DNA from: Ampullaceana balthica
Taxonomy: Eukaryota; Mollusca; Gastropoda; Lymnaeidae
DNA length: 64,000 nt
NCBI GenBank assembly: GCA_944989445.1
Contig: CALYLW010000209.1
Span: 25,001-89,000 of the forward strand
Reading direction: 5' to 3'
A program made the position numbers and the translations under genes. The notes below the pieces were generated by a model that saw only the letters and a list, made by a program, of their open reading frames with translations, made no database searches and was not told the DNA's origin. This document shows, piece by piece, positions 4,959-37,505 of the stretch (positions are counted from its first letter, which is position 1; every line of letters starts with the position of its first letter).

Positions 4959-5530
4959 AGCCTTTGAACCTGCCTGCTTATTCGTTACGCTCTAGCGAGG
5001 CTCTATGTAAACCACGTTTACGTATTCTTCAGTGGTTTCGGCCACTCTACTTGAGTTGAATTCTTATCGCTTCAACTGTATCTTATCTCTCTTTCGCTTT
5101 GTTGACCTACCTGATAGGTACACAAAACAATAACCTTTCTGATTCGATTGAAAGTTTGAATTTTTTGTTGTTTATACTTTGATATTAAGAATTTTATTTA
5201 CGTCTAACTGACTGGTCTTTGTAAACAACAGTTTTATTTCTACTTTAGGCAACCATCTGTGACCTTCTAATTTAGCCAACAATTTAACTGCACTGCAAGG
5301 TCTAGGGCCAATTAAAGCAGTCACAAGCAACCTTAGTAAAGGATAACATTAAGGTCAGTTACCAGTTTAATAACATTAAGGTCAGTTACCAGTTTAAGAT
5401 TTAATTTCTCATTAAAGGAACAAATTGCTCCACTTGCCCTATTAGGGACAAAACTAGTTGATTATCACTTAGTGAAAATTATAAAATATCTTAATTTCTG
5501 ACGTGCAAACTGAAAGAAAGTTTTCGTTTA
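4959..5530. other. Unassigned spacer upstream of the 31 bp array
   Basis: No gene seen. A 27 bp direct duplication (AACATTAAGGTCAGTTACC core) lies at about 5346-5398. The stretch could include distal regulatory sequence of the GMC gene, but nothing specific supports that. Confidence 0.4.
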
Positions 5531-5532
5531 GA

Positions 5533-8500
5533 ACAAAGAGCAGTGCAGTTTACATATATAAGAACAAAGAGCAGTGCAGTTTACATATATAAGAACAAAG
5601 AGTGGTGCAGTTTACATATATAAGAACAACTAGTAGTGCAGTTTACATATATAAGAACAAAGAGCAGTGCAGTTTACATATATAAGAACAAAGAGTAGTG
5701 CAGTTTACATATATAAGAACAAAGAGTGGTGCAGTTTACATATATAAGAACAACTAGTAGTGCAGTTTACATATATAAGAACAACTAGTAGTGCAGTTTA
5801 CATATATAAGAACAAAGAGTAGTGCAGTTTACATATATAAGAACAAAGAGTAGTGCAGTTTACATATATAAGAACAACTAGTAGTGTAGTTTACATATAT
5901 AAGAACAAAGGGTGGTGCAGTTTACATATATAAGAACAAAGAGCAGTGCAGTTTACATATATAAGAACAAAGAGTAGTGCAGTTTACATATATAAGAACA
6001 ACGAGTAGTGCAGTTTACATATATCAGAACAAAGAGTGGTGCAGTTTACATATATCAGAACAAAGAGTAGTGCAGTTTACATATATAAGAACAAAGAGTA
6101 GTGCAGTTTACATATATAAGAACAAAGAGTAGTGCAGTTTACATATATAAGAACAAAGAGTGGTGCAGTTTAAATATATCAGAACAAAGAGTGGTGCAGT
6201 TTACATATATCAGAACAAAGAGTAGTGCAGTTTACATATATAAGAACAAAGAGTGGTGCAGTTTACATATATCAGAACAAAGAGTAGTGCAGTTTACATA
6301 TATAAGAACAAAGAAAGGTGCAGTTTACATATATCAAAACAAAGAGTAGTGCAGTTTACATATATAAGAACAACGAGTAGTGCAGTTTACATATATAAGA
6401 ACAAAGAGTGGTGCAGTTTACATATATCAGAACAAAGAGTAGTGCAGTTTACATATATAAGAACAAAGAGTAGTGCAGTTTACATATATAAGAACAAAGA
6501 GTAGTGCAGTTTACATATATAAGAACAAAGAGTGGTGCAGTTTACATATATCAGAACAAAGAGTGGTGCAGTTTACATATATCAGAACAAAGAGTAGTGC
6601 AGTTTACATATATAAGAAAAAAGAGTAGTGCAGTTTACATATATAAGAACAAAGAGTAGTGCAGTTTACATATATAAGAACAAAGATTGGTGCAGTTTAC
6701 ATATATCAGAACAAAGAGTGGTGCAGTTTACATATATCAGAACAAAGAGTAGTGCAGTTTACATATATAAGAATAAAGAGTGGTGCAGTTTACATATATC
6801 AGAACAAAGACTAGTGCAGTTTACATATATAAGAACAAAGAGTGGTGCAGTTTACATATATCAGAACAAAGAGTAGTGCAGTTTACATATATAAGAACAA
6901 CGAGTAGTGCAGTTTACATATATAAGAACAAAGAGTGGTGCAGTTTACATATATCAGAACAAAGAGTAGTGCAGTTTACATATATAAGAACAAAGAGTAG
7001 TGCAGTTTACATATATAAGAACAAAGAGTAGTGCAGTTTACATATATAAGAACAAAGAGTGGTGCAGTTTACATATATCAGAACAAAGAGTGGTGCAGTT
7101 TACATATATCAGAACAAAGAGTAGTGCAGTTTACATATATAAGGACAAAGAGTGGTGCAGTTTACATATATCAGAACAAAGAGTAGTGCAGTTTACATAT
7201 ATAAGAACAAAGAGTGGTGCAGTTTACATATATCAGAACAAAGAGTAGTGCAGTTTACATATATAAGAACAAAGAGTGGTGCAGTTTACATATATAAGAA
7301 CAAGTAGTAGTGCAGTTTACATATATAAGAACAACTAGTAGTGCAGTTTACATATATAAGAACTACTAGTAGTGCAGTTTACATATATAAGAACAACTAG
7401 TAGTGCAGTTTACATATATAAGAACAAAGAGTGGTGCAGTTTACATATATAAGAACAACTAGTAGTGCAGTTTACATATATAAGAACAAAGAGTAGTGCA
7501 GTTTACATATATAAGAACAAAGAGTAGTGCAGTTTACATATATAAGAACAACTAGTAGTGCAGTTTACATATATAAGAACAAGTAGTAGTGCAGTTTACA
7601 TATATAAGAACAAAGAGTGGTGCAGTTTACATATATAAGAACAACTAGTAGTGCAGTTTACATATATAAGAACAACTAGTAGTGCAGTTTACATATATAA
7701 GAACAAAGAGTGGTGCAGTTTACATATATAAGAACAACTAGTAGTGCAGTTTACATATATAAGAACAAAGAGTAGTGCAGTTTACATATATAAGAACAAA
7801 GAGTAGTGCAGTTTACATATATAAGAACAAGTAGTGGTGCAGTTTACATATATAAGAACAAGTAGTAGTGCAGTTTACATATATAAGAACAAAGAGTGGT
7901 GCAGTTTACATATATAAGAACAACTAGTAGTGCAGTTTACATATATAAGAACAAAGAGTAGTGCAGTTTACATATATAAGAACAAAGAGTAGTGCAGTTT
8001 ACATATATAAGAACAACTAGTAGTGCAGTTTACATATATAAGAACAAGTAGTAGTGCAGTTTACATATATAAGAACAAAGAGTGGTGCAGTTTACATATA
8101 TAAGAACAACTAGTAGTGCAGTTTACATATATAAGAACAACTAGTAGTGCAGTTTACATATATAAGAACAAAGAGTGGTGCAGTTTACATATATAAGAAC
8201 AACTAGTAGTGCAGTTTACATATATAAGAACAAAGAGTAGTGCAGTTTACATATATAAGAACAAAGAGTAGTGCAGTTTACATATATAAGAACAAGTAGT
8301 GGTGCAGTTTACATATATAAGAACAAGTAGTGGTGCAGTTTACATATATAAGAACAAGTAGTAGTGCAGTTTACATATATAAGAACAAAGAGTAGTGCAG
8401 TTTACATATATAAAAACAACTAGTAGTGCAGTTTACATATATAAGAACAAAGAGTGGTGCAGTTTACATATATAAGAACAAAGGGTGGTGCAGTTTACAT

Positions 8501-8668
8501 ATATAAGAACAAAGAGTGGTGCAGTTTACATATATAAGAACAACTAGTAGTGCAGTTTACATATATATGAACAAAGTGTGGTGCAGTTTACATATATAAG
8601 AACAACTAGTAGTGCAGTTTACATATATAAGAACAAAGTGTTGTTGCAGTTTACATATATGAAATTAA
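5533..8668 (+). repeat. 31 bp minisatellite, about 100 copies, TATA-like core
   Basis: The unit contains GTGCAGTTTACATATATAAG followed by AACAA and a variable pentamer-heptamer (AGAGTAG, AGAGTGG, CTAGTAG, GTAGTAG). Middle copies (6020-7250) often carry TATATCAG in place of TATATAAG, and groups of variants recur, indicating higher-order duplication. Because 31 is 1 mod 3, all frames rotate and give spurious 82-83 aa open frames. The array ends 58 bp before the ATG of the GMC oxidoreductase gene, so its last TATATAAG motifs sit at a promoter-like distance. Confidence 0.95.
8621..8660 (+). promoter_or_regulatory. Possible core promoter in the last repeat units
   Basis: The last units carry CATATATAAG (about 8617-8626), a TATA-box-like sequence 100 bp before the start codon, with no other TATA-like element between the array and the ATG at 8727. 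This is an inference from position and sequence only; an upstream non-coding exon would refute it. Confidence 0.25.
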
Positions 8669-8726: not shown

Positions 8727-8859
8727 ATGTCGTCAACAAAAACTTTTCTATCGCTGGCTGTGGTGGCCATTTTAATTAAAGTGTACATTGACCGGAACTC
8801 ACAATCAAATGGATTACCCACAATTCAACGCTTCAACGAGTCATACGACTATATAGTCG
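8727..8859 (+). CDS. GMC oxidoreductase exon 1
   Basis: Encodes residues 1-44: a hydrophobic segment ([11 protein letters not shown]) and the start of the FAD-binding beta strand (YDYIV). The ATG at 8727 is the only in-frame start before the Rossmann motif. It ends in phase 1 at a strong donor (TCG|GTAAGT). Confidence 0.88.
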
Positions 8860-11800
8860 GTAAGTAATCGATTTGTTTTAAGATTGATATCACATTCAAT
8901 TAATGATATATAAAATAATACAAGAAAGATTAATTTAATAAAAATGAAACAATAATCTATCTCTGCTATAAGGTCTTGTAGTCTGTAACTAAACACGTCA
9001 TTGGCGTTATCTACTCAAAGTCTTTACATCTCTAACACCCCTTAGGGGCCGTCCATAAAGTACGTCACACTATTTTTTGACCATTTTTAACTCGCCCCCC
9101 CCCTTCCCACCTGTCACAAACTGTCACAAATCTTTAAGTACGTCACACTTACGAAAAAAAATTATTAATTTTTTTATTACGAAATAATTAAAATTTAATA
9201 TAAAACGCCGTGACATCACAGATGACCGGACCCTCCTCCCCTGTCACAAACTGTCACACTTTCTTACACCCCACCTCTGGAGCGAGACGTACTTTATGGA
9301 CGGCCTCTTAACGGTGAAAGTGGGCTGATTTATTAAAAAATCGTCGATACCTCCATTATCTACGAAACTTTAAAAGAATAAAAAAAATCTTGCAATTCAC
9401 TCAGACAATTGTAAGAATTACATTTTAAACACGTGCATTTCTTTGACTATACCACTTAACATCTCTAGGATTGTTTCTTCTAACGTAAAGAAATTCTGAA
9501 ATTTTAACCATCGTATTCCTTAAAATTAGCACACAAAAAAAGAGTTAATTCATTGTTAGTAAAATAAAAATGATTTTGTTTTATTCCAGTTTAGTGGTAT
9601 CAAATTCAATGTTTCATGTCTTTTCTGCTGCAGTCGGGGCAGGATCTGCTGGCTGTGTTGTTGCCAACCGTCTGTCGGAGGATGCTGACGTCACAGTACT
9701 CTTGATAGAAGCCGGCGAAGATGATTGGAGCAATCGGAATATTTCTATCCCAGGGCTGGCTGCTGCCACCTGGCGGACTGACATCGACTGGTCGTACTCG
9801 ACTGAGAAACAAAATGGGACGTTGTCGGGGTTTCAAGGCGAGGTAAATATCTGGTGTAGGAAGTTTGGGGTGGGGGAGGTGAGGGTGCAAAGGAGGTGGT
9901 CCGGCCAGGGATCCGCATTTTTAAATCCCCTATATTAACTTCGCGGCCGTCTCTGTCGTCATCTCTCTCTCTCTGTCTGTCTTGGGCGGGCGGAAAAACA
10001 AAAGTAAAAATTGACCCACTTACCGTGATCCGATCGAGCTCAAATTTGGCACACGGACCCGTCTGACCTAACAATGCATCGTTTCAAAATTTCAGATCGA
10101 TCGAACGTACGGTAATTAAATTAATGCATTTTTAGTTTATCCTTATATGAGGTATGTAATTCAAATTCACTGTTTGTTATTGTTTTTTTCCCACGTGAGA
10201 GTTTGAGTTGACGCGTTGACGCGACCCATCGAAGTACCGGCGTGCTTTTTTTACATTTTACGTGTCACGCTGAGCTCGGTCAAGCGATCGGTGACCAGAC
10301 TTTTCCCATCTCCCCCCCCCCGCCACCCACCGCCCCCCCCCCGGGTTGTGAAGCAAAGTTGAGTTAAGACAGATTCAGTCTGTAAATGTTTGTCGCGTTT
10401 GAAAATAATCAATACTGTTAGTTATGTCTCATATATAAGGGATTTATAGTCAAAAACTTTGTTTTTACGGGTTTGTTTTATTAATTTTATTTGAAGGGAT
10501 GGCTTCGTCGGTCAGCTGGCATTGATTAAGTTTTGGGATTTCTGATCTAATTTTATAACAAATCTGACCTCTAAAACAAAAAAGCTAACTTAAACGTTGC
10601 TCCGCGAATTCCCTCGTCAGTAGCACATGGAAATGCAACGGCCAATTCCTTAGTCCGAGTTAACATTAGTAGTGGTCACTAATGTCCATCTCACTGACCC
10701 AGGTATCCTACTGGCCAAGAGGTAAGGTCCTGGGGGGCACCAGTAGCATCAATGGCATGCAGTTTGTCCGGGGCTCCAAGCACGACTACAACAGGTGGGC
10801 CCAGTACACGGGGGCCCAGGACTGGAACTATGAACATGTGCTGCCATATTTCAAGAAGATGGAGGACATGCAGATCCCTGAATTAAGGACTTCAGGTAAG
10901 AAGATAGAGGACATACAGATACCTGAACTAAGGACTTCAGGTAAGAAGATAGAGGACATACAGATACCTGAACTAAGGACTTCAGGTAAGAAGATAGAGG
11001 AGATGCAGATACCTGAACTAAGGACTTCAGGTAAGAAGATAGAGGACATGCAGATACCTGAACTAAGGACTTCAGGTAATGGGTGGCAAGTTGATCGTAT
11101 ATTTAATTTGTTTTTGTCGTTTGGCAGAATTTCTGATATTTAAAACTATTTTACTCTCGAGAAAATTAACAACAAAAAATTATGAGTTAATTAAATTTAA
11201 TATTAATATAAATAATTACCACAATAACACATTTTTTCGTGGTTTAACCTAAATTATTTCATAAGAATTCCTAAAATCAAATCCAACTGTTCTCTCCGGA
11301 TTACCAGCTGTTTTGTCTACTGTCCAGATTACCAACTGTTCTGTCTACTGTCCAGATTACCAACTGTTTTGTCTACTGTCCAGATTACCAACTGTTCTGT
11401 CTACTGTCCAGATTACCAACTGTTCTGTCTACTGTCCAGATTACCAACTGTTCTGTCTACTGTCCAGATTACCAACTGTTCTGTCTACTGTCCAGATTAC
11501 CAACTGTTCTGTCTACTGTCCAGATTACCATCTGTTTTGTCTACTGTCCAGATTACCAACTGTTCTGTCTACTGTCCAGATTACCAACTGTTCTGTCTAC
11601 TGTCCAGATTACCATCTGTTTTGTCTACTGTCCAGATTACCAACTGTTCTGTCTACTGTCCAGATTACCAACTGTTCTGTCTACTGTCCAGATTACCATC
11701 TGTTTTGTCTACTGTCCAGATTACCAACTGTTCTGTCTACTGTCCAGATTACCAACTGTTCTGTCCACTGTCCAGATGACCACGGTCAGGAGGGCCCACT

Positions 11801-14800
11801 GCCCATCAACAGGATCAAGTCCCAGCCATTGGCCAATAAGATCGTAGAAGGGGCTCAAACAGTGGGCTACCCATACAACGCTGACTACAATGGTGCTACC
11901 ATGGAGGGTGAGTGGTTGTATACCTTTACCCACACTTAAATGTGGGTAGTTTTATACATTTACCCCCACTGGAAGGTGGGTAGTTGTATACATCTACTCA
12001 CATTATAAGGTGGGTGGTTGTATACCTTTACTCACACTAGAAGGTGAGTGGTTGTATACCTTTACCCACACCAGAAGGACAAAAATCACACATTTTTATG
12101 CGCATGAGGGGAAAAACAAACAAACAAACACAATTTTTTTAAAAAATAATAAATTAATTAAAATCCCTATTTAAATTAAATTAAACTTTTTTATTCCACC
12201 AGTAAAGTTGTATTTCATTGAATTGATTTGCGACCTGGTTTTGAAATTACTGTTACATTTTTTATAACAACCTGTTGTAAACCTTATATTGATTACCTGT
12301 GTTCACCCACCTGAACCGTCTGACGTCCTCTACAGGTATCTCACATTCCCAAGTCAACGCTGAACGAGACGAGAGATGGAGCACCAGCCGAGCGTACATA
12401 CACCCCATCATTGACAGACCTAATTTACACGTGTCTGTCAGGTCTCATGTACAGAAGGTAACTGAAATTCTGACCATATCATTTTGTTTAAAGCAGAGAT
12501 TCCCAAACAAAGTACTAGGGTGCTCTAGGTACCCGAGGACCCTTGACTACTTATTGAGCCAGACAAGACAATACAATGTAATACAAGTTACCTCCTAACA
12601 CCACCCTCTCATTTGACATATATCAAACAGGAAACCCTGGCTACAGCGAGGACGCAAGTGCTTGAAACAACTAGAGAATCTGTTGTAGCAATCATATTGA
12701 AAACTGAAGAAATAATTTAGGAACCTTTTGTAACTATCATTTTGATTATTGATAAAATAAATTGAGACTCTATTGTAGCTATCATGTAAACGTATCATCA
12801 AAGAGTTGAGTTTATTTTCCCCAGATTGTCATTAACAACAAGAGAGCTGAGGCCGTGGAGGTGATCAAAGATGGCAGAAAATCAACTGTTAAAGTCAAGA
12901 GAGAAGTCATTCTGTCAGCTGGTGCAATAGGTTCACCACAGGTTCTCATGTTGTCGGGAGTGGGTCCTAAAAACCACTTGGAGCAGCTCAAGGTAGTTTT
13001 TTTTCCTTTAGAGTTTTGTCCGCTTCGTAGTCTACAACTACAATCGTAATTCGCATTTTACAAATACATCCTTATTTCATTCTTATTTGAGCCTCACTTG
13101 AGCTTTGTTCCAGTGGTATATCAGCTTTGTTTAAGTAAACTGAAATTGATGTCAAAATAATTCGTTTCTTTATCTATAACTTCACTGGTCGATCTACTGC
13201 TAATATTAGAATTTGCTTTTGAAACTCTTTGCCAACTTGACTTCATTTCTTGCCTGGCAAGTAGCTCAGATTCCTGTAGTTTGTGTTAGTGCACATCTCT
13301 TGTCATCTTGTTGGATTTAATTAACGTTGTTCTTAGTATCATATTTTATCAGTTGATTATTCTTACTTTGTAACACTTGCATGCCAATTTCTTTACACAT
13401 ATTTACACATATTTACATGTACGTGTTATATAAAGAGCTAGCTTTCTGATGAGGGCTTCTGACGAAAAGTCGATTCTTTTTGGGTTTTTTTTTCTTCCGT
13501 TTCCATCTTCCTACTTGACTTGTATTTAGCCTGATTGCAGCCCCAATCGTATAATTTTACCCCAAGATCCCCGTTGTGGCCGACCTTCCAGTGGGTGAGA
13601 ATCTCCAGGATCATTTGTTTCTTGACATGGGAGTCAAGATCAGGGAACCACTGTCTGCAAAGTTTGACAGTCCTTTCAGTTGGTGGACTTACCTGGAATA
13701 CTACATCTTTGGAACAGGTAAATGTTACAACTTGGATTTTACCACTTATACACACAGTACAGGTAATGGTACAACATCTGCCACAGGTAATGGCACAACA
13801 TCTGCTACAGGTAATGGTACAACATCTGCCACAGGTAATGGTACAACATCTACCACATGTAATGGCACAACATCTGCCACAGGTAATGGTACAACATCTG
13901 CCACAGGTAATGGCACAACATCTGCCACAGGTAATGGTACAACATCTGCCATAGGTAATGGTACAACATCTACCACAGGTAATGGTGCATCTGCCACAGG
14001 TAATGGTACAACATCTGCCACAGGTAATGGTACAAAATCTGCCACAGGTAATGGTACATCTCCCACAGGAAATGGTACATCTGCCACAGGTAATGGTACA
14101 ACATCTGCCACAGGTAATGGTACAAAATCTGCCACAGGTAATGGTACATCTCCCACAGGTAATGGTACAACATCTGCCACAGGTAATGGTACAACATCTG
14201 CCACAGGTAATGGTACAACATCTGCCACAGGTAATGGTACAACATCTGCCACAGGTAATGGTACAACATCTGCCACAGGTAATGGTACAACATCTGCCCA
14301 CAGGTAATGGTACATCTCCCACAGGTAATGGTACAACATCTGCCACAGGTAATGGTACAACATCTGCCACAGGTAATGGCACAACATCTGCCACAGGTAA
14401 TGGTACAACATCTGCCACAGGTAATGGTACAACATTTGCCACAGGTAATGGCACAACATCTGCCACAGGTAATGGTACAACATCTGCCACAGGTAATGGT
14501 ACAACATCTGCCACAGGTAATGGTACAACATCTGCCACAGGTAATAATGGTACAACATCTGCCACAGGTAATGGTACAACATCTGCCACAGGTAATGGTA
14601 CAACATCTGCCACAGGTAATGGCACAACATCTGCCACAGGTAATGGTACAACATCTGCCACAGGTAATGGCACAACATCTGCCACAGGTAATGGTACAAC
14701 ATCTGCCACAGGTAATGGCACAACATCTGCCACAGGTAATGGTACAACATCTGCCACAGGTAATGGTACAACATCTGCCACAGGTAATGGCACAACATCT

Positions 14801-17800
14801 GCCACAGGTAATGGTACAACATCTGCCACAGGTAATGGTACAACATCTGCCACAGGTAATTTTACGACTTGAACATGACAACTCAAACCACACGTCGGTG
14901 ATGGTTACATTTAAATTTGACAATATATATTCACACAACAGGTAATAAATGGGTACAATGTAAATCCCATATTTATAGAACTTGAAAATGTAAAATGAGT
15001 GAAAAAAAGGTTTTAAATAATTTTTAATACATTAAGTTTTCGCTGACAGCCCTGAAATAAACTTTCTTAAATCTCTCTTGAGTAGAGCAACTTCTTTATG
15101 AATTTATGAACGAATATTCTACTTTCATTTGTAACCATGCTAGTTGATGGAGATTTTATCCGCTGATAATTCTTGCCTACTTAGGGCTCCTTACATCTGA
15201 CAATTGTTGCCTACTTAAGGCCCCATAACTCTCATAATTATTGCCTACTTATGACCCCTTAAATCTGACAATTCTCACCTACTTAGGCTCCTTACATCTG
15301 ACAATTCTCACCTACTTATGGCTCCTTAAATCTGACAATTCTCACCTACTTAGGGCTCCTTACATCTGCATATCAAGCAGAGACCTTAGCCTTCAGGAGC
15401 ACAACAAAAGAAACAAGGGAGATAGACTGGCCGGACTTGGAGATCCATTTTTTCACTTACCTCCCCCACACCGACGCTGATGTTTTGAGATACAGCGCTG
15501 AGGTAAGGGTTCTGTAAATATGGCAAAGGAGATCTGGCGGGTTTAGTGCATAAGTAGATTTTCGATAAGAAAATGGGGGGGGGGATTAAGACAAAGAAGG
15601 AACATAAAAGATGTCCCAAAAATTAAATTGCATTTATTTATCCTAAACTCTAAATTTCGACAAGATACTTTCATGTTACAGCACCCCGTACATTAATAAA
15701 ACGACATTTGTCACCTGTTCATGTAAAGCTCACAAAAAACTCTCCTGAAGTAACTGGGACCAACGTTTCCTCTAAGGTTCTTTCATATGGTCCGTATGCA
15801 AAGTAAAAAAAAACAACAACTGGTGTGCAAAGTTGGTCAACATCTAGTTTTTGTGCAATATTTTACTAAATTTGCAGTATGGTAATTCTAAACTACTACT
15901 AGATGTCGCTCAGAAATCTGCGCGGCCGCGCAACTTAAAGGGAATATTGGCGTGGAGGCATCCACTCATGATGTTTCAGTATTGTAGAGATCATTTCCCT
16001 CTTGTCACTTGGTTCTAGGAATAAGGGCAAGGCACGCAGTATGAAGAGAGATTCAAATGTTCTTTCAATGGTCTGAGGGGAGATTTAGGGAAACGACGAC
16101 TTCGTGATAGTTGGGATAGTGGGACTTAAAGATGGTGTTGATGGTGTCGAATTTGATGTTTTAATAGTTGTAGTTGATGTTGTAGATGTTGTAGTTTTGC
16201 CGTTGTCCCCCACGATGTAGGTCAACGCTGACCTGGCTGACAGAGACACCTCCACTTACGGGTTCCGTTGTTTGCCATCACTACTTCGACCAGAGAGCAG
16301 GGGGAGAATAACACTTAGGTCACGTGACCCATTCGACCACCCAATAATTTTTGCAAATTACCTGAGCCGACAAGACGACATTGAACTGTTGATTAGAGGT
16401 AGGTAGTGTAGCTCTGTTTACATGAAGTATCACATGAACTGGAATTTGTTTTCATATAAAGAGAGTCAGATTGAAGACTTGTTTATCTCTGTCTGTCGTT
16501 ATTTTTCTTTGGCCTCTTTCTGGCTTAGAGATTAATCTGTTGGCATGTGACTGTGCAGCGGAAACATATAATGATGCAGCTTTTGAAATTTACCAACACT
16601 TTATGCATTTCATTTTAAAGCGTCAATGAAGATGAAGTTTGTTTTAAATTGTCTAACTGATATATCTACTTGTCTATCTCCACCTCCTCGCATAGCACTG
16701 AGGTAAAGGTTGAATTTTTTAAAAAATAGACTTTTTGAAATTGTATTAAAACGTAGCTGTTCTTGTTGTGACTTAAATAGATGTTCTTGCAGTGACTAAA
16801 GTATATGCTTTTTAGTGCTAGAACATAGATATTATTAAAAGTGGTAAAAAAATAGCTATCCAATGAGTGGTATAACGCAGAGAGTGTTCCATGTTTAAAA
16901 AGAGCTGCACTTTTATTTCTGATTTTACTCTTACAGTCCCTGTTGTAAAAAATTATTTTCTAAACTTTTTTTGTCCTAGGAGCTCTCCTACCACACTCAT
17001 CCCGCCCCCTTGTTATAGCATTATTTGACGTTTGGATTTACTTCGGCGCGTTTCAGTTAAGTCCCTTGACAAATCTATTTAAACTTGTCCTCCGAGTCCA
17101 TACTGTTATACGATCTGTTTCCTAACAAGGCGTGCAAGAGTGTAAGAAGATAATCGATTCTAAGCCACTGAAAGATATCGGAGCCCAGTTTACAGATACG
17201 ACTCCAGCCAGGGCCTGCAAGCAGTATCGATATGACTCGCACGAGTATTGGACCTGTGTGCTCAAACTTCGACCCCTCACCATCTACCACCCAATCGGCA
17301 CGTGCAAGATGGGACTAAGTGATGACCCATCAGCCGTTGTGGATCCCCAGCTCAGGTGGGTCTGTGGGATAAAACACAATACGATTTTAGGGTTAACATT
17401 CTAAATGTTTAGTATTTGATATTGAAAGAATGAAAACTTATTATACAGACCACCAATAAAAAAGAAGAAAAGAAAAATTAAATGAAAATTTACAGGTTCG
17501 TTTTCCCCACAATAAAAGTTTTATTAAAAGGAATGAAAAGTAGTCTGGGAATTGAACTCGGGTCTCTTGGTCAGCATGTTAGCATTCACTCGTGCATCTT
17601 AAAAACACCTTTCTTATTCCGTATGCAAGAACAAACACATACAAGTTTTTCTTCTTCCCGTCCGGAATTCGGGCGTGGAATGGGTTGCCTGAAGAATCCA
17701 GGAAAACCAACACTTTATCAACATTTAAATCTCTAATAAAAATGCAGGACTAAACACAAACCATAGATAAGCGTAGGACGCAATAATCTTCTGTATAGAA

Positions 17801-18904
17801 GGAGCGTCTGTAAACAGATAAGATAAGATAAGATAAATCAATCGGCCATAGCGCTCTGGTTATTACATTTTAACTAGCCATCAAAAAGAAATGAACACAT
17901 TAAAAGAATTCTTTGATTATTGTGAATAGAATTTGGTTGATTGATTTAATAGAAGTTTCAGCAACTGGAGATCGAGAAGTTTAAGAAATATTTTGTACAA
18001 AATTTAAACAAAAACTGGTCGAAATGACAGAGCTAGTTTAAACAAACAACAACAACAAACAAACAGACTCATACGCTGGATGTAGACTTGTTGATACAGA
18101 GCTCTCGTAAATTAAAGTCATATCTTTTAATTTGACTTTAAAAAAAAATATTGGATAACCTTCAGGAGTTTAGTTTATTCTTGGCTAAAAGATTTTTTCT
18201 GTTGGCACTATTTTAGCACTTCTCCTTTAACGCATCTGCTTTAACACATTTGTTTTAACACATCTGTTTTAACAAATATGTTTTAACTATTAATTTCTGG
18301 ATTAATCGTTAAAAATTTTATCGATTAAATATCGATTAAAATAATTTTAATCGATAAAAAATCGAATAAAATTTAAGAAAATATTTATACTATTTTTTTT
18401 TCAATTTATCAAAAAATAATTAATTATTAATAATAATTTATATATTTTTTAACGTACAAACTCCTCCCGCATATTATTATAATTTATTAATTTATGTAGA
18501 CGTGGATTTAATAAAATAAAATTTAGATCAAAATATTATTTTTTAATGTCTATAAGACAGGGGAAATAGCTAAATAAAACAAAAATGTGAATTATCTGTT
18601 GTTTTTTTTTACTTCCCTTGAGATGTTCAGTTTAATGACGTCGTAAATTTAAATTTTGGCTTTAATCAAAACTAACTATTAATTCTTGAAATTAATCGTT
18701 AATTTTTCAAAAGTTAACATTTAAATTAATCGTTACCAGCCCTAGTTTTAACACATTTCTGGCTTTTCTTGCAGAGTAAGAGGATTGTCTGGCTTACGTG
18801 TTGTGGACGCCTCCATTATGCCATGGATTGTCTCAGGAAATACAAATGCACCAGCAATCATGATTGGGGAAAAAGCATCGGATATAATCAGAGGAAAAGT
18901 TTAA
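8727..18904 (+). CDS. GMC oxidoreductase (glucose dehydrogenase [FAD, quinone]-like), 11 exons, 596 aa
   Basis: Exons: 8727-8859, 9634-9842, 10703-10895, 11776-11907, 12336-12457, 12825-12992, 13567-13717, 15354-15502, 16221-16398, 17130-17355, 18775-18904. All introns are GT-AG and all phases agree, giving 596 codons, a normal GMC length. Residues 7-21 are hydrophobic (signal peptide or anchor). The FAD-binding GxGxxG motif is 46-51 (GAGSAG) with the acidic residue E70. GMC signature 1 ([13 protein letters not shown]) is 121-133 and signature 2 ([17 protein letters not shown]) is 295-311. The catalytic His is H532 in [10 protein letters not shown], and SGNTNAP (574-580) carries the second active-site position. 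The family oxidises alcohols or sugars using FAD; the substrate cannot be read from sequence. Introns 3, 4 and 7 carry splice-site-containing minisatellites. No break is seen in the coding sequence. Confidence 0.93.
9045..9307. mobile_element. Harbinger-like MITE in intron 1, TTA target duplication
   Basis: Ends are inverted: GGGGCCGTCCATAAAG at the left and CTTTATGGACGGCC at the right, flanked by TTA on both sides (9042-9044 and 9308-9310). It shares ends and C-rich interior with the copies at 22226, 51936 and 54792. A three-base TTA duplication is typical of PIF/Harbinger elements. No coding capacity. Confidence 0.8.
9634..9842 (+). CDS. GMC oxidoreductase exon 2 (FAD-binding fold)
   Basis: Acceptor CTGCTGCAG|TC. 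Codes residues 45-114, with GAGSAG and the LLIEAG strand whose Glu contacts the adenosine ribose in this family. It ends in phase 0 at CGAG|GTAAAT. Confidence 0.92.
9925..10490 (-). repeat. ~500 bp TAAATCCCTTATAT-ended repeat in intron 2
   Basis: A single reverse-oriented copy of the 3000-4958 repeat, running from AAATCCCCTATATTAAC to TATATAAGGGATTTATAG plus the GTTTTTACGGGTTTG tail. It occupies most of intron 2. Being inside an intron with both ends present, it supports dispersal as a mobile unit rather than only tandem growth. Confidence 0.82.
10703..10895 (+). CDS. GMC oxidoreductase exon 3 (signature 1), with repeated donors
   Basis: Acceptor CTGACCCAG|GTA. Encodes residues 115-178, including [13 protein letters not shown]. 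The first donor, ACTTCAG|GTAAGAAG at 10895, gives the family-like join to exon 4. The last 39 bases and the donor are then repeated four more times, all in frame, so the exon could equally end at 10940, 10985, 11030 or 11075, adding 15 residues each time. Confidence 0.9.
10857..11079 (+). repeat. 45 bp tandem repeat spanning the exon 3 donor, 5 copies
   Basis: Each unit holds the end of exon 3 plus GTAAGAAG. Donors follow 10895, 10940, 10985, 11030 and 11075; the first four are CAG|GTAAG and the fifth is CAG|GTAAT. The unit is 15 codons and stop-free in the coding frame ([15 protein letters not shown]). Confidence 0.95.
11286..11775 (+). repeat. 28 bp tandem repeat ending at the exon 4 acceptor, 17 acceptor copies
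   Basis: The unit is a pyrimidine-rich stretch (CTGTTCTGTCTACTGTCCAG) followed by ATTACCAA. CAG dinucleotide ends fall every 28 bases from 11327 to 11775, and the last one joins exon 4. The eight bases after each CAG resemble the start of exon 4 (ATGACCAC), so the unit spans the junction. Every third acceptor (11691, 11607 and so on) is in the exon 4 frame, which stays open back to 11313. Confidence 0.95.
11776..11907 (+). CDS. GMC oxidoreductase exon 4
   Basis: Encodes residues 179-222, including GQEGPLPI and [15 protein letters not shown], which match the GMC family between the FAD and substrate domains. It enters in phase 1 and ends in phase 1 at GGAGG|GTGAGT. Confidence 0.9.
11904..12078 (+). 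repeat. 34 bp tandem repeat starting at the exon 4 donor, 5 copies
   Basis: Donor-like GTGAGT or GTGGGT begins each unit at 11908, 11942, 11976, 12010 and 12044, followed by a GTTGTATACCTTTAC-type core. Three copies have AAG before GT, a better match to the donor consensus than the true exon end. Confidence 0.9.
12336..12457 (+). CDS. GMC oxidoreductase exon 5
   Basis: Acceptor CCTCTACAG|GT. Encodes residues 223-263, including STSRAYIHP and [11 protein letters not shown], the conserved region before signature 2. Phase 0 donor AGAAG|GTAACT. Intron 5 (12458-12824) is AT-rich and contains three diverged ~60 bp units around TTGTAGCAATCAT. Confidence 0.9.
12825..12992 (+). CDS. GMC oxidoreductase exon 6 (signature 2)
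   Basis: Acceptor TTTTCCCCAG|ATT. Codes residues 264-319 with the second GMC signature, [17 protein letters not shown]. Both ends are phase 0. Intron 6 (12993-13566) shows no repeat or gene. Confidence 0.93.
13567..13717 (+). CDS. GMC oxidoreductase exon 7
   Basis: Acceptor TTTACCCCAAG|ATC. Encodes residues 320-369, with [10 protein letters not shown], a GMC landmark. The donor GGAACAG|GTAAAT is phase 1. The reading frame stays open past the donor into the 24 bp array to 14307, so downstream donors could extend the exon in frame. Confidence 0.9.
13753..14868 (+). repeat. 24 bp tandem repeat of splice donors after exon 7, about 46 copies
   Basis: The unit reads GGTAATGGTACAACATCTGC then CACA, so each copy carries CCACAG|GTAATGG, a good donor. 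Read in the exon 7 frame it encodes GNGTTSAT with an N-G-T glycosylation sequon in each unit. A few units are 21 or 27 bp, still multiples of three. One extra base near 14300 shifts the frame and stops it at 14305. Before that point about 23 donors preserve phase 1. Confidence 0.95.
15150..15365 (+). repeat. 33-35 bp tandem repeat ending at the exon 8 acceptor, 6 copies
   Basis: Each unit combines the intron end (CTCACCTACTTAG) with the first bases of exon 8 (GGCTCCTTACATCTG). AG ends occur at 15184, 15219, 15286 and 15353; two copies have TTAT in place of TTAG. The last copy supplies the real acceptor. Confidence 0.88.
15354..15502 (+). CDS. GMC oxidoreductase exon 8
   Basis: Acceptor CACCTACTTAG|GG completes the split Gly codon from exon 7. 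Encodes residues 370-419, with [14 protein letters not shown], typical of the GMC substrate domain. The donor GCTGAG|GTAAGG is phase 0. Confidence 0.88.
15760..15962. mobile_element. Possible small MITE in intron 8
   Basis: The ends are roughly inverted (CAACGTTTCCTCTAAGG against CTTAAAGGGAATATTGG), with a GCGCGGCCGCGC palindrome near the right end. A similar sequence lies at 19099-19314. No clear target duplication. The rest of intron 8 holds short GTTGTAGTTGATG-type repeats near 16160-16200. Confidence 0.45.
16221..16398 (+). CDS. GMC oxidoreductase exon 9
   Basis: Acceptor CACGATGTAG|GTC. Encodes residues 420-478, with [19 protein letters not shown], a conserved GMC C-terminal block. It ends in phase 1 at TTAGAG|GTAGGT. 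Intron 9 (16399-17129) is AT-rich with no recognised feature. Confidence 0.92.
17130..17355 (+). CDS. GMC oxidoreductase exon 10 (catalytic His)
   Basis: Acceptor CCTAACAAG|GC. Encodes residues 479-553 with [11 protein letters not shown]532 is the conserved catalytic base of the family. It ends in phase 2 at CTCAG|GTGGGT. Confidence 0.93.
17600..17840 (+). mobile_element. 5'-truncated CR1/Jockey-like LINE 3' end in intron 10
   Basis: Reading the frame TTCTTCTTCCCG gives [18 protein letters not shown] followed by [16 protein letters not shown] and a stop, the usual C-terminus of this LINE type. A short 3' UTR ends in a (GATAA)n tail. The last ~135 bases recur with no difference I can see at 24585-24717. 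Confidence 0.8.
18220..18290 (+). repeat. ~14 bp TTTAACACATCTG repeat near the end of intron 10
   Basis: About five units of TTTAACRCATNTG-type sequence. A sixth appears at 18747-18760 after an inserted hAT-like element, just before the exon 11 acceptor. TTTAAC resembles a branch-point sequence. Confidence 0.65.
18288..18746. mobile_element. hAT-like element remnant interrupting the intron 10 repeat
   Basis: AT-rich with repeated ATTAATCGTTA and TCGATTAA motifs. The right end reads CGTTACCAGCCCTAG, matching the family of the 40667-41478 element (TAGGGCTG ends). The left end is degraded. Confidence 0.6.
18775..18904 (+). CDS. GMC oxidoreductase exon 11 (C-terminus)
   Basis: Acceptor TTTTCTTGCAG|A. 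Encodes residues 554-596, with VVDASIMP and [17 protein letters not shown], the conserved GMC terminus, then TAA at 18902. No AATAAA signal is visible in the next 200 bases. Confidence 0.93.
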
Positions 18905-27200: not shown

Positions 27201-30200
27201 CTGTTGTAAGAATTTGATCATTGAAATGGGATGTAAGAGAAATACCAATGAGTGTTAATTTAAACATTTGATTAATAATTTTTAATTTGAACATCTGATT
27301 TATTTTTGATAATACATATATATGTCAATTTAAACATTTGCTTAACTTATGATAATTTATTTAACTTTCAAAGTATACATCGTATTAATATTTGATAGTT
27401 TTTAATTTAAACATTTGAATATTATACGATAACTGTCCATGTAAGCATATGATTAACGTATAATAATTTATTTGAATCTCAACGTTGGGGCCGTCCATAA
27501 ATGATGTCACGCACCTAGGGGGAGAGAGGTGGTCGACCATTGTTTACGATGCGTGACGAGAGGGAAAGGGTGTTTAACATTGTGACGTCACATCAAAACG
27601 CGCAACTTTAAATAAAAATTGAAAAGGTTAATTGGTCACGAAATTCACTTATATGTTATTTGTTTGGGGCTGGGGGCTCTAAGGATTAATTGATTAATGA
27701 AGGACATCATTCCATGAAAATCGTGATGTGTTGGAATATAAAGTCTCAGTTCTTTCAGTTCTTAAATACATTTTAAAATACTCTTGAATGTTTACATTTA
27801 ACTAGTTATCTGATTGTAAACCACCATCACCTGAATATATCCTTGGTCTACCATCACCTGAATATATCCTTGGTCTACCATCACCTGAATATATCCTTGG
27901 TCTACCATCACCTGTATATATCCTTGGTTTACCAACACATTAAACAAGACGAGGCGAGAAGTGAAAAGATGAGCTTCTCTCGTTAATATTCTTAACTCGA
28001 TTGATTGCTGCTTGGCTAATTTTTCAAAATTACTTTTTGCATTAAATAGAGATCTGGAAAGTGTGGCAATCTGATGGCCTGATTACCTGATGTACTGGGT
28101 ACTCCACGAGAACCAGAAGGTGTACTTTCAACATCAGAACCAGAAGGTGTACTTTCAACATCAGAACCAGAAGGTGTACTTTCAACATCAGAACCAGAAC
28201 GTGTACTTTCAACATCAGAACCAGAAGTTGTATTTTCAACATCAGAACCAGAAGGTGTACTTTCAACATCAGAACCAGAAGGTGTACTTTCAACATCAGA
28301 ACTAGATGGTGTGCTTTCAACATCAGAACCAGGTGTACTTTCAACATCAGAACCAATTGAATCGTTGTTACCATGATGACGTGAGTTCGTGTTGTTTACC
28401 CATGAAGAGATCGGAGACATTTCGGGGAAAATTGCTATACTTTTCTTTGATATTTTTAACTTTGGTATCTCTATTGATGCTTTAGTCTTTGGCGATCTTC
28501 TGGGTACTTTATTTTGTGGAGACGTTCTTGGTACTTTTGGTTGTGGAGAACTTGTTCGTACTTTTGCTTGTTTAGATTTTCTTGGTACTTTCGCTAGTGG
28601 AGATTTTCTTGGTACTTTTGCTTGTTTAGATTTTCTTGGTACTTTTGCTAGTGGAGATTTTCTTGGTACTTTTGCTTGTTTAGATTTTCTTGGTGCTTTT
28701 GCTAGTGGAGATTTTCTTGGTACTTTTGCTTGTTTAGATTTTCTTGGTGCTTTTGCTAGTGGAGATTTTCTTGGTATTTTTGCTTGTGGAGATTTTCTTG
28801 GCACAATTGCTTGTGGAGAATTTGCTTGTATAGATACGTGTGGAGCGTTTGTTTGTAGAATTTCTTGTGGAGGGCTTGCTTGTACAATTGCTTGTTGAGC
28901 ATTTGTTTGTAAAATTTCTTGTGGAGATTTTCTTGGTATTTTGGCCAGTGGAGCCTTTCTGTGTAATTTTCCTTGTTTAGATTTTCTTGGTACTTTTGCT
29001 AATGGAGATTTTCTTGGTACTTTTGCTTGTTTAGATTTTCTTGGTGCTTTTGCTAGTGGAGATTTTCTTTGTACTTTTGCTTGTGGTGATTTTCTTGATA
29101 CTTTTGCTTGTGGAGATTTTCTTTGTACTTTTGCTTGTGGTGATTTTCTTGGCACAATTGCTTGTGGAGCATTTGCTTGTACAGATACTTGTGGAGCGCT
29201 TGTTTGTAGAATTTCTTGTGGAGGGCTTGCTTGTACAATTGCTTGTTGAGCATTTGTTTGTACAATTTCTTGTGGAGATTTTCTATGTACTTTGGCTAGT
29301 GGAGCCTTTCTGTGTACTTTTCCTTGTTTAGATTTTCTTGGTATTTTAGCCTGTGAAGACTTTCTTGGTATTTTTACTTTTAGTTTTGTTGATTTGTCGC
29401 TTGCATGAAATGAATGTAATTCAATCTTTCTTTTTTTGGGTATCGGTTTATTCACGGTGGAGCTGTAAAGGGATCAATATATATTTCGTAATTATTTAGA
29501 TATTTAATCTCCACTCAATAAAACAAATATAAGTACTTCAACTCTGGCAACTTAATAATGTATCTTTTTTCTTTTAATTAAAATTTTTAACAAAAATATC
29601 CGTGGTTCAGAATGTAGTATTTATCTTGTTGAAATGTGGGCTCCTGTTGTGTTCTCATTTGCCCATAAGAAACTATTTTTTCAACAACATATGAGTCATT
29701 TCATTCATTGTCTTTGTCATAGAAATATCTTCATTTATTTAAAAATAATAAAAAGCTTCGATAACATATTTTATAAAATGGAAGTAAACAAACAAAATCA
29801 CATATCAGAAACAAAACAAAAACTAGTCTGTACAATATATAAACATACATTTTTATCAGCTTCTACGCAAATGAGAGTTAAGAGCACTATTTGTGCGTAA
29901 GTGATCTCCCTTTTTTTCCCAAGCGAAATTTTATTGGAAACAATTAGCGTTATACTTGTATTTTCTTATATATATATAACAATAATTCTAAGGAAAAAAG
30001 ACCCCACTCCCACACACAAACACTTTTAAAAAGGCTCTAACAGGAAAACATATTTAAGAAAACGTGATTACGCCACTTTAACTTAGAAAATGATTTTTGA
30101 AATTGTAAAAATCATTATGCAAAGTCAGATTGTGGAATTTGGGACGAGCACTCTATGTTGCAAAAACAGTTGAATTGAATTTTTTATTCATAATTAGTCG

Positions 30201-33357: not shown

Positions 33358-36300
33358 ATGAAATCTGATATCTCTAATATATATTACGGAGTGATTATTC
33401 GGCGATTTCTCCGTATAACGCCGGGGGTTATTATATATATATGTGGTCCAAGGTTGTCATTGCCAGGGCGGGGGTGGAAGATAATCATCCACTGCTCTAG
33501 AAATGCCCTAAAAGGCTTGCGTCTCTTAATGCCTCTGTCAACCAAAATCCAGCTCCTGGCCTTCTCGCGTGGCTCACACAAAAGCCCGGCGGACCATGTT
33601 TCTACTAACAGGAGAAGGGATGAAGGCGGTCAACTGGCGCCTCAAAACCAGTAGCTTCGGGTAGATGAGACTCGTTAACCATGGTCGGTAGCTCATCTAG
33701 GAGAGGGAAACTCTTATTCTAAACCTCCGCTGCCTTGCGGCTAAACCCTCATGGGAAAGGCTAGTGGAGTAAACCCCGACAGAAAATCAGGAAATGGAGC
33801 TCCTAAGGCGGTCTGCTACTGAAACAAATTGCATTCCGGCAGCTCCTGCGACGCGAATAGTGCCAAGCCGTATCGACATTAGTCATTCCATTGGATCCAC
33901 CAATTGCGTGGAGAGGGGGGATCTGCTGTTTGGGCAGCAGCTGGTTCTCCATAATAACACGCCCAGGCTTTATCTTTACAGGAGAGGACACTCCAGCATC
34001 GCCGCAAGGTGTGAACACAACACGGGAAGCAGCAGTTTACCGGTTATAAGCCATAGCTCAATTGGCGTAGAGCTAGGCGCCAGGGGTTGCTTCTGACGGT
34101 GGGAGAGATCACCATGTCTCAATGGATCGCTACCGCCCGCCTCAAGCTGGGCAGCCCCCAGCCAATAAGGTGCTATCCCGCCATGGCCTACCTGCTCCAC
34201 TGGGTGCGTGGAGCTCAGAGGAACTTCTCAACAAGTGGGCCAGTAAATCCTGCACCTAGAAATAAAAAAACCAAAGATAAGAAGACTCCGGCTCTTCGCC
34301 TAGCAAGCTGGAACGTTAGGACTATGTGTCCAGGCATTACTGCCGACCTGCAGCTTATTGATGATGCCAGGAAGACAGCCATCATTGACAGGGAGCTTGC
34401 CAGACTAAACATCGACATTGCCTTCCTTCAGGAGACTAGACTCCCAGAAAGTGGTACCATAAAAGAATACAACTACACTTTCTTCTGGCAGGGTGGACCA
34501 ATGGACACACCAAGGCAACATGGGGTTGGTTTTGCCATAAAAAATGGACTGTGCTCCTCCATAGAACCCCCAACAAAGGGCACTAACAGAATACTAAGAA
34601 TACGACTATCTACATCCTCAGGATAAGCCAACATCATCAGTGCTTATGCTCCAACCTTATCCTCGAGCTCAGAAGCGAAAGACCAGTTCTATGATGATCT
34701 CAATCAAACACTAGCCAGCATACCCACCAATGAAGCAATCTACCTCCTTGGTGACTTCAATGCAAGAGTTGGAAGTGATCACATGGCCTGGCCAACGTGC
34801 CTCGGTTATTTTGGAAGAGGCAGGCTAAATGAAAATGGGCAGAGATTACTAGAGATGTGCTGCTTACATGGACTATGTGTCACAAATACTTTCTTCAACT
34901 GCAAAGCAATCCACCAAGTGTCATGGAGGCATCCCCGCTCTAAACACTGGCACCAACTAGATCTCATCATCACAAGACGCACACAACTGGCCAGTGTCCT
35001 CCTCACACGCAGTTACCACAGTGCAGACTGCGACACAGATCATTCCTTAGTGGCTAGCAAGGTAAGGTTACTGCCAAAGAAATTGTACCGCAACAAAAAC
35101 AAGGGAAAACCACGCATAGGCATCTGCTCCACCAAGAATCCAGAGAGAACAGCAGAATACACCCAGAGACTACAAGAATCTCTTGTACAAATGCCACCAG
35201 TAGACACTATTGAGTCCAAGTGGTCACATCTGCGGGACACCATATATGGCTCAGCTATTGCGGCATTCGGCAAGAGAGAACGCAAAATTGCAGACTGGTT
35301 TGAGGCCCACTGGGAGGAAATGAAACATGTCACCGATGCAAAAAGAAAGGTTCTTTTAGCCTATAAAGACAGGCCTTGCCCAGAAACTCTACATTTCATT
35401 AAGAGCGCCAAGAAGAATGCCCAGCAGGCAGCTCGCCACTACGCTAACACGTATTGGCTCAATCTAAGTTCCAGCATACAGTCAGCTGCTGATAGAGGCG
35501 ATACAAAGGCTATGTACGAGAATATAAAACAAGCAACAGGCCCTATGACCTCCAAGACAGCACCCTTAATGTCAAAAGCAGGGGAAATTATCACTGATCG
35601 GGACAAGCAACTCCAACGGTGGATCGAGCACTACCTGGAATTGTACGCAACTATAAACCATGTCTCAACTGCTACCCTGGACGATATCCCAGACCTGCCG
35701 GTCATGGAAGAGCTCAATAGCCTACCCACAATGGTCGAGCTAAGTAGAGCCATAGATTGCCTAGCCTGCGGGAAAGCCCCTGGTAATGATGGAATTCCAC
35801 CAGAAGTTCTCAAACGTGGAAAAGAAATACTTTTACAGCCTTTGCATGACCTCCTCACTCTGTGCTGGGAACAGGGGCAGATACCACAGGAGTTAAAAGA
35901 TGCCAACATCGTTACACTGTATAAAAATAAAGGAGACAAGAGTGACTGCAACAACTATCGTGGAATCTCTCTCCTCAGTATAGTTGGAAAGGCCTTCGCC
36001 CGAGTTGCATTGACACGCCTGCAGACCCTAGCATCGCGTGTACTCCCAGAATCGCAGTGCGGCTTTCGAGCCGGAAGATCAACCATAGACATGATCTTCT
36101 CTCTGCGCCAGCTGCAGGAGAAATGCAGGGAGCAACATATGCCTCTATACATCGCGTTCGTCGACCTAACTAAAGCTTTTGATCTTGTCAGCAGAAGCGG
36201 CCTTTTCCAGATCTTAGTAAAAATAGGCTGCCCTACACATCTGCTTAACATCATCAAGCAATTCCACGAAAACATGCAGGGCACAGTGTGCTATAACGGT

Positions 36301-37505
36301 GCCACCTCTGAGGCTTTCCCAGTAAGTAGTGGAGTAAAGCAAGGCTGCGTGTTGGCACCTACTCTATTCGCAATATTCTTTTCCATCTTACTCCAGTATG
36401 CCTTCAAGAACAACAGCGAGGGGATATACATACACACCAGAGCTGACGGGAGATTATTCAATATTGCCCGACTTAAAGCCAAGACCAAAATAAGGAAGAT
36501 TTTGCTGCGCGAGCTCTTATTTGCAGACGATGCCGCCTTAATATCCCACACAGCAGACGGCCTGCAGAACCTTGTATCCAGCTTCTCCGCTGCCTGCAAA
36601 GAGTTTGGCCTGACCATAAGTATAAAGAAAACCAACATTATGGCACAGGATGCTGCCTCTCTCCCGACTATCACCATTGACGACTGCAACCTGGATGCTG
36701 TTGACAGTTTTACTTATCTGGGATCAAACATCTCGAGCACCCTCTCACTGGAAGATGAGATAAGTAGTAGGATAGGGAAGGCAGCAACTGTTATGGCTAG
36801 ACTGTACAAAAGAGTCTGGTCCAATGCCAAACTCACAGCAAGGACTAAGCTGCAGGTATACCAGGCCTGCGTACTGAGCACACTCCTCTATGGATGCGAG
36901 TCTTGGACCACCTATACCAGGCATGAAAGAAGGCTCAATAGCTTCCACCTCAGATGCCTGCGCCGCATCCTAGACATCAAATGGCAAGAGAAAGTCCCCA
37001 ACACAGAGGTCCTGGCTCAAGCAAGCATGAGTAGTATTGCAGCAATATTAAGCCAAAGACGCCTCCGTTGGCTTGGACACGTCAAGAGGATGCAAAGTGG
37101 TCGCATACCCAAGGATGTGCTTTACAGCGAGCTGGCGACAGGGAAAAGGTCGGTTGGTCGGCCATGTCTCAGATACGTGGACATATGCAAGAGAGACATG
37201 AAAGTAGCCAACATTGATATACAAAACTGGGAAAACCTGGCAGAGGATAGGTCCATGTGGCGGGCTATAGTGAAAGAAGGATCACTAAGAGCAGAGGAGC
37301 AAACTAGGGCAGAAGCAGTCGGGAAAAGAGCGAGGAGAAAGGCCAGGCAACACTGCCCCACTGCTTTCGTGTGTGTGTCATGCAGAAGAGACTGCCACTC
37401 AAGGATTGGTCTCATCAGCCACACCAAGAGCTGCAAATAATAAAGATAAATCTATCGTCTTTCGTAGACGCACAGATGCCATACAATACAATACAATACA
37501 ATATA
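33358..37505 (+). mobile_element. Nearly full-length non-LTR retrotransposon (endonuclease/RT LINE)
   Basis: A GC-richer segment than its surroundings: about 750 bp of 5' leader (start uncertain), a long ORF, a ~60 bp 3' UTR and an (ATACA)n tail. It inserted close to the end of the 30 bp array. The leader has small frames (for example 33794-34096) that I cannot support as a protein. Confidence 0.9.
34114..37440 (+). pseudogene. LINE ORF: APE-type endonuclease, reverse transcriptase, C-terminal zinc finger; one premature stop
   Basis: From an ATG in good context (ACCATG, 34114) the frame runs 1,109 codons with a single in-frame TAA at 34624-34626 (codon 171). Endonuclease motifs: SWNVRT, LQETR, ISAYAPT (just after the stop), LGDFNARVG, QLDLI and TDHSLV. 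Reverse transcriptase: GKAPGNDGIPPEVLK, NNYRGISLL, GFRAGRSTIDMIF, FVDLTKAFD, SGVKQGCVLAPTLF and the catalytic FADD in LLFADDAALI. Then RRLRWLGHVKRM and a C-terminal Cys/His finger (CVSCRRDCH...HTKSC). Such ORFs are often mis-annotated as craniofacial development protein 2-like. The single nonsense codon implies recent activity; the clade is uncertain (RTE- or Nimb-like). Confidence 0.92.

What the first reader, a model, noticed from the sequence alone, without database searches (positions are those of the whole stretch)
10703..15502. One gene, five splice-site-spanning minisatellites
In the GMC gene, the exon 3 donor (45 bp x5), exon 4 acceptor (28 bp x17), exon 4 donor (34 bp x5), exon 7 donor (24 bp x~46) and exon 8 acceptor (33-35 bp x6) are each next to or inside a tandem repeat whose unit carries that splice signal. 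The units differ in length and sequence, so these are five independent expansions. Splice-site copies could create a large set of alternative junctions, or act as decoys that buffer splice-site mutation. I know of no described class of repeats like this; shared origin at exon-intron borders (slippage, R-loops or repair at spliced regions) is inference.
Basis: partly seen in the sequence, partly recalled or inferred. Interest (0 to 1): 0.92.

Follow-up and report, generated by a model that had tools for sequence, protein, structure and literature searches.

The report
Splice-site minisatellites in a pond-snail gene
In a pond-snail enzyme gene several short repeat arrays sit across exon-intron borders; this looks like a kind of repeat already described in amphioxus, and most likely a by-product of a genome rich in minisatellites rather than a new splicing device.

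Summary
A complete 11-exon GMC oxidoreductase gene (596 aa) lies at 8727-18904. Four tandem arrays span its exon 3 donor, exon 4 acceptor, exon 4 donor and exon 8 acceptor. A fifth, 46-copy array starts 42 nt after the exon 7 donor; its unit resembles that donor (weak support). The units are mutually unrelated, so the expansions are independent.

Two points change the reading. First, the class is described: "mirages", minisatellites spanning exon-intron boundaries in amphioxus. Second, borders are not strongly preferred. In genes of the same genome picked without regard to repeats (GMC paralogs, kinesins), 9 of 202 junctions are spanned, against 4.0-4.7 expected if duplications start anywhere in introns: about two-fold. 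Array coverage falls from 21-26% inside introns to about 8% at junctions. This gene is a favourable extreme.

Inner copies show no consistent preservation of GT/AG (7 of 14 arrays above neighbouring dinucleotides), though four arrays here keep nearly all. Best explanation: neutral local duplication across borders, tolerated because the outermost copy can still splice. Which copies are used is untested: there is no RNA.

The parts
8727..18904 (+). GMC oxidoreductase gene: E1 8727-8859, E2 9634-9842, E3 10703-10895, E4 11776-11907, E5 12336-12457, E6 12825-12992, E7 13567-13717, E8 15354-15502, E9 16221-16398, E10 17130-17355, E11 18775-18904
   Evidence: joined exons give a 596-aa open frame; PF00732 and PF05199; 84% identical to a partial Lymnaea stagnalis protein
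10853..11079 (+). 45 bp x5 array across the exon 3 donor (CTTCAG|gtaag); first copy is exonic, all five copies keep CAGGT
   Evidence: TRF; copies; span
11295..11782 (+). 28 bp x17.4 array across the exon 4 acceptor (ctgtccag|ATGACCA); 7 nt of exon inside; 16 of 16 aligned inner copies keep AG
   Evidence: TRF; copies; span
11907..12078 (+). 34 bp x5 array at the exon 4 donor (GAGG|gtgagt); all four inner copies keep GT, one has lost the G before it
   Evidence: TRF; copies; span
13759..14860 (+). 24 bp x46 array beginning 42 nt after the exon 7 donor; unit ACAG|GTAATGG resembles that donor
   Evidence: TRF; weak ungapped match; 45 GGTAA motifs between donor and array end
15163..15368 (+). 33-34 bp x6 array across the exon 8 acceptor (cctacttag|GGCTCC); three of six copies lack AG
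   Evidence: TRF; copies; span
5530..8660 (+). 31 bp x101 array ending 66 bp before the start codon; TATATAAG occurs 80 times in it (core-promoter-like)
   Evidence: TRF; sequence; count; promoter role is inference

Best explanation
These are mirage-type minisatellites. A short segment that happened to straddle an exon-intron border was duplicated in tandem, and the copies then multiplied by slippage or unequal exchange. For a donor the first copy, for an acceptor the last copy, stays joined to the exon and can keep splicing; the other copies lie in the intron and are removed, so the protein need not change. In a genome with abundant tandem arrays a few per cent of borders are expected to be hit, and some genes will carry several. 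Shown: the anatomy, unrelated units, conserved exon borders, the rate in two other sets of genes of this genome. Inferred: outermost-site use, neutrality, the duplication mechanism. A mild excess at borders, if real, may reflect survivorship: an array that contains a needed site cannot be deleted completely.
For: Four arrays span junctions and lie mostly on the intron side. The same anatomy occurs in GMC paralogs (5 of 108 junctions) and kinesin genes (4 of 94). Tandem arrays cover 27% of 200 kb (20 loci; six of them hold about three quarters of it) and 28.5% of 264 kb with the window. Random duplication in introns predicts 4.0-4.7 of 202 against 9 seen. Inner splice dinucleotides are not consistently kept. 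Homologous predicted snail proteins have no insert at the borders. Amphioxus mirages are reported not to interfere with regular splicing (passage).
Against: The excess over the random model is about two-fold (Poisson P 0.02-0.05; P 0.0009 if three diverged terminal copies count), and the window gene is far above it (4 of 9 arrays against 0.53), so some attraction or survivorship is not excluded. By sequence, inner copies of the exon 3 donor, exon 4 acceptor, exon 4 donor and exon 7 donor arrays carry intact sites, so exclusive use of the outermost site is not obvious. No RNA data.
Confidence: 0.75

Rival explanations
1. Splice sites (and core promoters) are preferred birthplaces or refuges of minisatellites, through transcription-linked damage or because arrays holding an essential site cannot be lost.
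For: 9 of 202 junctions against 4.0-4.7 expected, P 0.02-0.05, or 12 with three diverged terminal copies, P 0.0009; window gene 4 of 9 arrays against 0.53; donor-like motifs in array units above controls (7 of 74 against 3.1 at 8 bits, a set that includes the window and the GMC loci); the 101-copy array rich in TATATAAG just upstream of the start codon.
Against: GMC paralogs alone 3 of 27 arrays against 1.42 (P 0.17); kinesins 1 of 11 against 0.88 (P 0.61); no acceptor motif excess; array coverage falls, not rises, at junctions.
Confidence: 0.17
2. The arrays serve to produce many alternative junctions or protein length variants, or as decoys that buffer splice-site mutation.
For: The 45-bp and 24-bp units are multiples of three; the exon 3 frame stays open through all copies; inner copies of four arrays keep GT or AG; AG|GT at unit borders recalls the dual-specific sites reported in tandem-repeat genes such as polyubiquitin (passages of PMC10809524).
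Against: 28, 34 and 33-34 bp units shift the frame; the 24-bp array meets a stop at about 14305 in the exon 7 frame; half of the exon 8 acceptor copies lack AG; over 14 arrays no consistent preservation; no inserts in homologous proteins.
Confidence: 0.07
3. Assembly artefact inflating the arrays.
For: Tandem arrays are error-prone in assemblies; reads were not available.
Against: Copies differ by base changes and indels, and other loci show the same anatomy with other units.
Confidence: 0.03

Closest known systems
Mirages of amphioxus (Adh3, globins BflGb6 and BflGb9, TnC; similar repeats in PGBD5)
   Same: Minisatellite-like tandem units spanning donors or acceptors, several lengths, many but not all copies keep the splice signal (passages of PMC3087553 and PMC3902484)
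   Different: Pond snail instead of lancelet; up to five in one gene; copy numbers up to 46; splicing, polymorphism and somatic instability not tested here
IFI6 (6-16) minisatellite with multiple splice donors (recalled; only a search listing seen)
   Same: A minisatellite whose unit carries a donor (recalled)
   Different: One array in one human gene with reported use of inner donors (recalled)
Intron gain by tandem duplication of AGGT segments (passages of PMC4974935)
   Same: Tandem duplication supplies splice signals
   Different: Here the intron positions are shared with paralogs; no new intron
Dual-specific splice sites in tandem repeats such as UBC (passages of PMC10809524)
   Same: AG|GT at the unit border in the exon 3 and exon 7 arrays
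   Different: Use as both donor and acceptor is not shown here

Membership tests
Mirage (splice-boundary minisatellite) | tandem unit spans an exon-intron boundary | tested here: met
   4 of 5 arrays by TRF; the exon 7 donor array begins 42 nt away, ungapped match p 0.03
Mirage (splice-boundary minisatellite) | both 5' and 3' boundaries can be affected; many but not all copies carry AG/GT | tested here: met
   two donors and two acceptors span; copies
Mirage (splice-boundary minisatellite) | regular splicing undisturbed in mRNA | not testable with these tools
   no RNA; homologous predicted proteins lack inserts
Mirage (splice-boundary minisatellite) | length instability between haplotypes | not testable with these tools
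   one assembly only
Introner-like mobile intron sequence (family recalled) | the same unit recurs at many loci | tested here: inconclusive
   no unit found outside its own array, but only in the 352 kb in hand; the genome-wide DNA searches did not complete
Intron gain by AGGT tandem duplication | intron at a new position | tested here: not met
   intron positions shared with paralogs
Dual-specific splice sites | the same site used as donor and acceptor | not testable with these tools
   needs RNA

The most novel reading that the evidence does not exclude
In this snail genome functional sites (splice sites and perhaps core promoters) act as anchors or seeds for minisatellites, giving a genome-wide class of functional-site arrays, found in unrelated lineages, that hold dozens of near-equal splice sites and could feed new junctions or introns.
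Probability: 0.16. Interest if true: 0.65.

Novelty: new member of a known kind. Interest (0 to 1): 0.36.

Why it matters
It suggests that splice-boundary minisatellites are not a lancelet peculiarity: in this snail 9 of 202 sampled junctions carry one, within about two-fold of what abundant minisatellites would give by chance. It gives a simple null model (unit length against intron length) for judging such cases, and natural competition tests in which many near-identical donors or acceptors compete in one intron.

Tried and rejected
Rejected or not supported: a strong preference of arrays for splice sites (coverage profile; 20-mer duplication test, paralogs 5 of 108 junctions against 632 of 3275 intron positions; seed model); minisatellites in general deriving from splice sites (modest donor excess, no acceptor excess); frame-preserving selection on unit length (6 of 14 spanning or adjacent arrays have a unit divisible by three: 45, 24, 63, 39, 93, 51; the others are 28, 34, 33-34, 59, 29-30, 51-53, 44, 37; read by eye, two of them ambiguous). 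Mobile units: no sign in 352 kb. A null placing whole arrays freely over introns gave 8 seen against 11.9; it lets long arrays cover exons, so I replaced it by the seed model.

Limits of the counts. Six junction calls of the GMC paralogs were dropped by hand as doubtful before counting (script). Of the 94 kinesin junctions 62 come from 31 intron pairs (for one intron in L033 I took the second-best pair, and the pair in L040 scored poorly) and 32 were called singly from a splice score near a profile hit; two of the four spanned kinesin junctions are among these 32. The 13 kinesin loci were chosen from about 30 for compact span, before their repeats were seen, which may favour array-poor genes. 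The expected rate comes from 75 complete introns (34 inside arrays), the 202 junctions include incomplete introns. The Poisson test ignores clustering within genes. The dinucleotide test was run without gaps (7 of 14, means 0.72 and 0.83; the exon 7 row is wrong there) and again with gaps (7 of 14, means 0.76 and 0.83); the exon 3 row counts an exonic stretch as a copy and the exon 8 row counts one AG too few, by the copy table, and setting the exon 3 row right would make it 8 of 14. The test measures likeness to the functional copy, so it is blunt.

Papers that gave nothing on the point: PMC3152781 (no hit); PMC6905558 and PMC7931591 (passages: an intronic minisatellite in an abalone gene; repetitive introns; no border-spanning arrays mentioned in the passages seen). 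PMC2812944 (passages) reports tandem repeats that change human gene structure.

Full report
Where it is. The window is contig C209:25001-89000 of a 1.097-Gb assembly. The best of the 120 listed protein matches is from the pond snail Lymnaea stagnalis (partial, 84% identical in the alignment), so the genome is most likely that of another lymnaeid snail; the species was not identified.

The gene. Eleven exons at 8727-18904 join to one open frame of 596 aa with GMC_oxred_N and GMC_oxred_C. Intron positions recur in paralogs of the same genome. Five predicted proteins from four other snail species show no insert at the borders they cover (the nearest is partial).

The arrays. TRF confirms the five. 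Exon 3 donor: 5 copies of 45 bp, the first exonic; the four inner copies share changes that the exonic copy lacks, as expected when inner copies homogenise. Exon 4 acceptor: 17 copies of 28 bp, including 7 nt of exon. Exon 4 donor: 5 copies of 34 bp, all with GT. Exon 8 acceptor: 6 copies of 33-34 bp including exon sequence, three without AG. Exon 7 donor: 46 copies of 24 bp starting 42 nt downstream; the donor resembles the unit weakly without gaps (p 0.03) and better with one gap. The units are unrelated to each other, and none was found elsewhere in the 352 kb in hand.

Is it special to splice sites? Tandem arrays make up 27% of 200 kb fetched in 20 loci, unevenly: six loci hold about three quarters of it. 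In 128 junctions of the GMC family (window gene included) array coverage is 1% in exons 30-60 nt from the border, 8% just inside the intron and 21-26% at 150-800 nt. A fair null is that a duplicated unit starts anywhere in or across an intron. Under it the window gene has 4 spanning arrays of 9 against 0.53 (P 0.001, selected), GMC paralogs 3 of 27 against 1.42 (P 0.17), kinesin genes 1 of 11 against 0.88 (P 0.61). Counted by junction, 5 of 108 GMC-paralog and 4 of 94 kinesin junctions are spanned, 9 of 202 in all, against 4.0 expected (4.7 with arrays collapsed to one unit; bootstrap range 2.2-5.7; P 0.02 and 0.05). So there may be a two-fold excess, not an exclusive link. At 9 of 202, a gene with 20 junctions has 4 or more spanned with probability 0.011 and 5 or more with 0.0016, which over an assumed 20,000 genes is about 215 and 31 genes: a reader of many windows will meet one.

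Function. Nothing shows that inner copies are used. Whether they are kept by selection is unclear: in this gene the inner sites of four arrays are nearly all intact, while in the exon 8 acceptor array three of six copies lack AG; over 14 arrays the splice dinucleotide beats the mean of neighbouring intron dinucleotides in 7 (means 0.76 and 0.83; caveats in Tried and rejected). Units not divisible by three would shift the frame. Use of the outermost copy is the simplest reading, but without RNA it is inferred; intact inner sites make some leakage plausible.

What is known. Minisatellites spanning exon-intron boundaries are described in amphioxus as mirages, with units of 10-160 bp, AG/GT in many but not all copies, different copy numbers in two haplotypes, and no interference with regular splicing as judged from Adh3 data and globin RT-PCR (passages of PMC3087553; one passage of PMC3902484). 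The original Adh3 paper was not read. My searches (listings, with only 12 of 89 papers seen) showed no such report for snails; that is not proof of absence. The finding is a new member of a known kind.

Beyond the finding. A 31-bp array of 101 copies, with TATATAAG 80 times, ends 66 bp before the start codon. If it is the core promoter, the same anchoring would apply to promoters; this is inference. It keeps the survivorship idea alive as the most novel reading.

Noticed in passing
5530-8660: 101 copies of a 31-bp unit, TATATAAG 80 times, end 66 bp upstream of the GMC start codon: a possible array of core promoters.
   Followed up: partly
18212-18287 and 18746-18774: A 14-bp repeat (TTTAACACATCTGC) in intron 10 resembles, by eye, the stretch just upstream of the exon 11 acceptor about 500 bp away.
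   Followed up: no
27823-27938: On the minus strand a 27-bp x4 repeat with TTCAG|GTGATGG lies in an open frame; it may be another donor-spanning array of an unidentified gene.
   Followed up: no
34057-37440: Open frames; the one at 34627-37440 has a reverse transcriptase domain and a weak endonuclease match, a LINE-like element.
   Followed up: no
L014:3909-4607 and 5778-6105, L016:1931-3528, L018:8067-8366 and 8460-8586, L035:1556-2584, L036:4925-5956 (reverse complement of the locus), L038:3500-4713, L040:3664-3766: The nine other splice-boundary arrays found in GMC paralogs and kinesin genes of the same genome.
   Followed up: yes
L013:1-8824: A 46-bp x200 array fills most of an intron and ends about 36 nt before the exon 11 acceptor of a GMC paralog; its unit does not resemble the acceptor.
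   Followed up: partly
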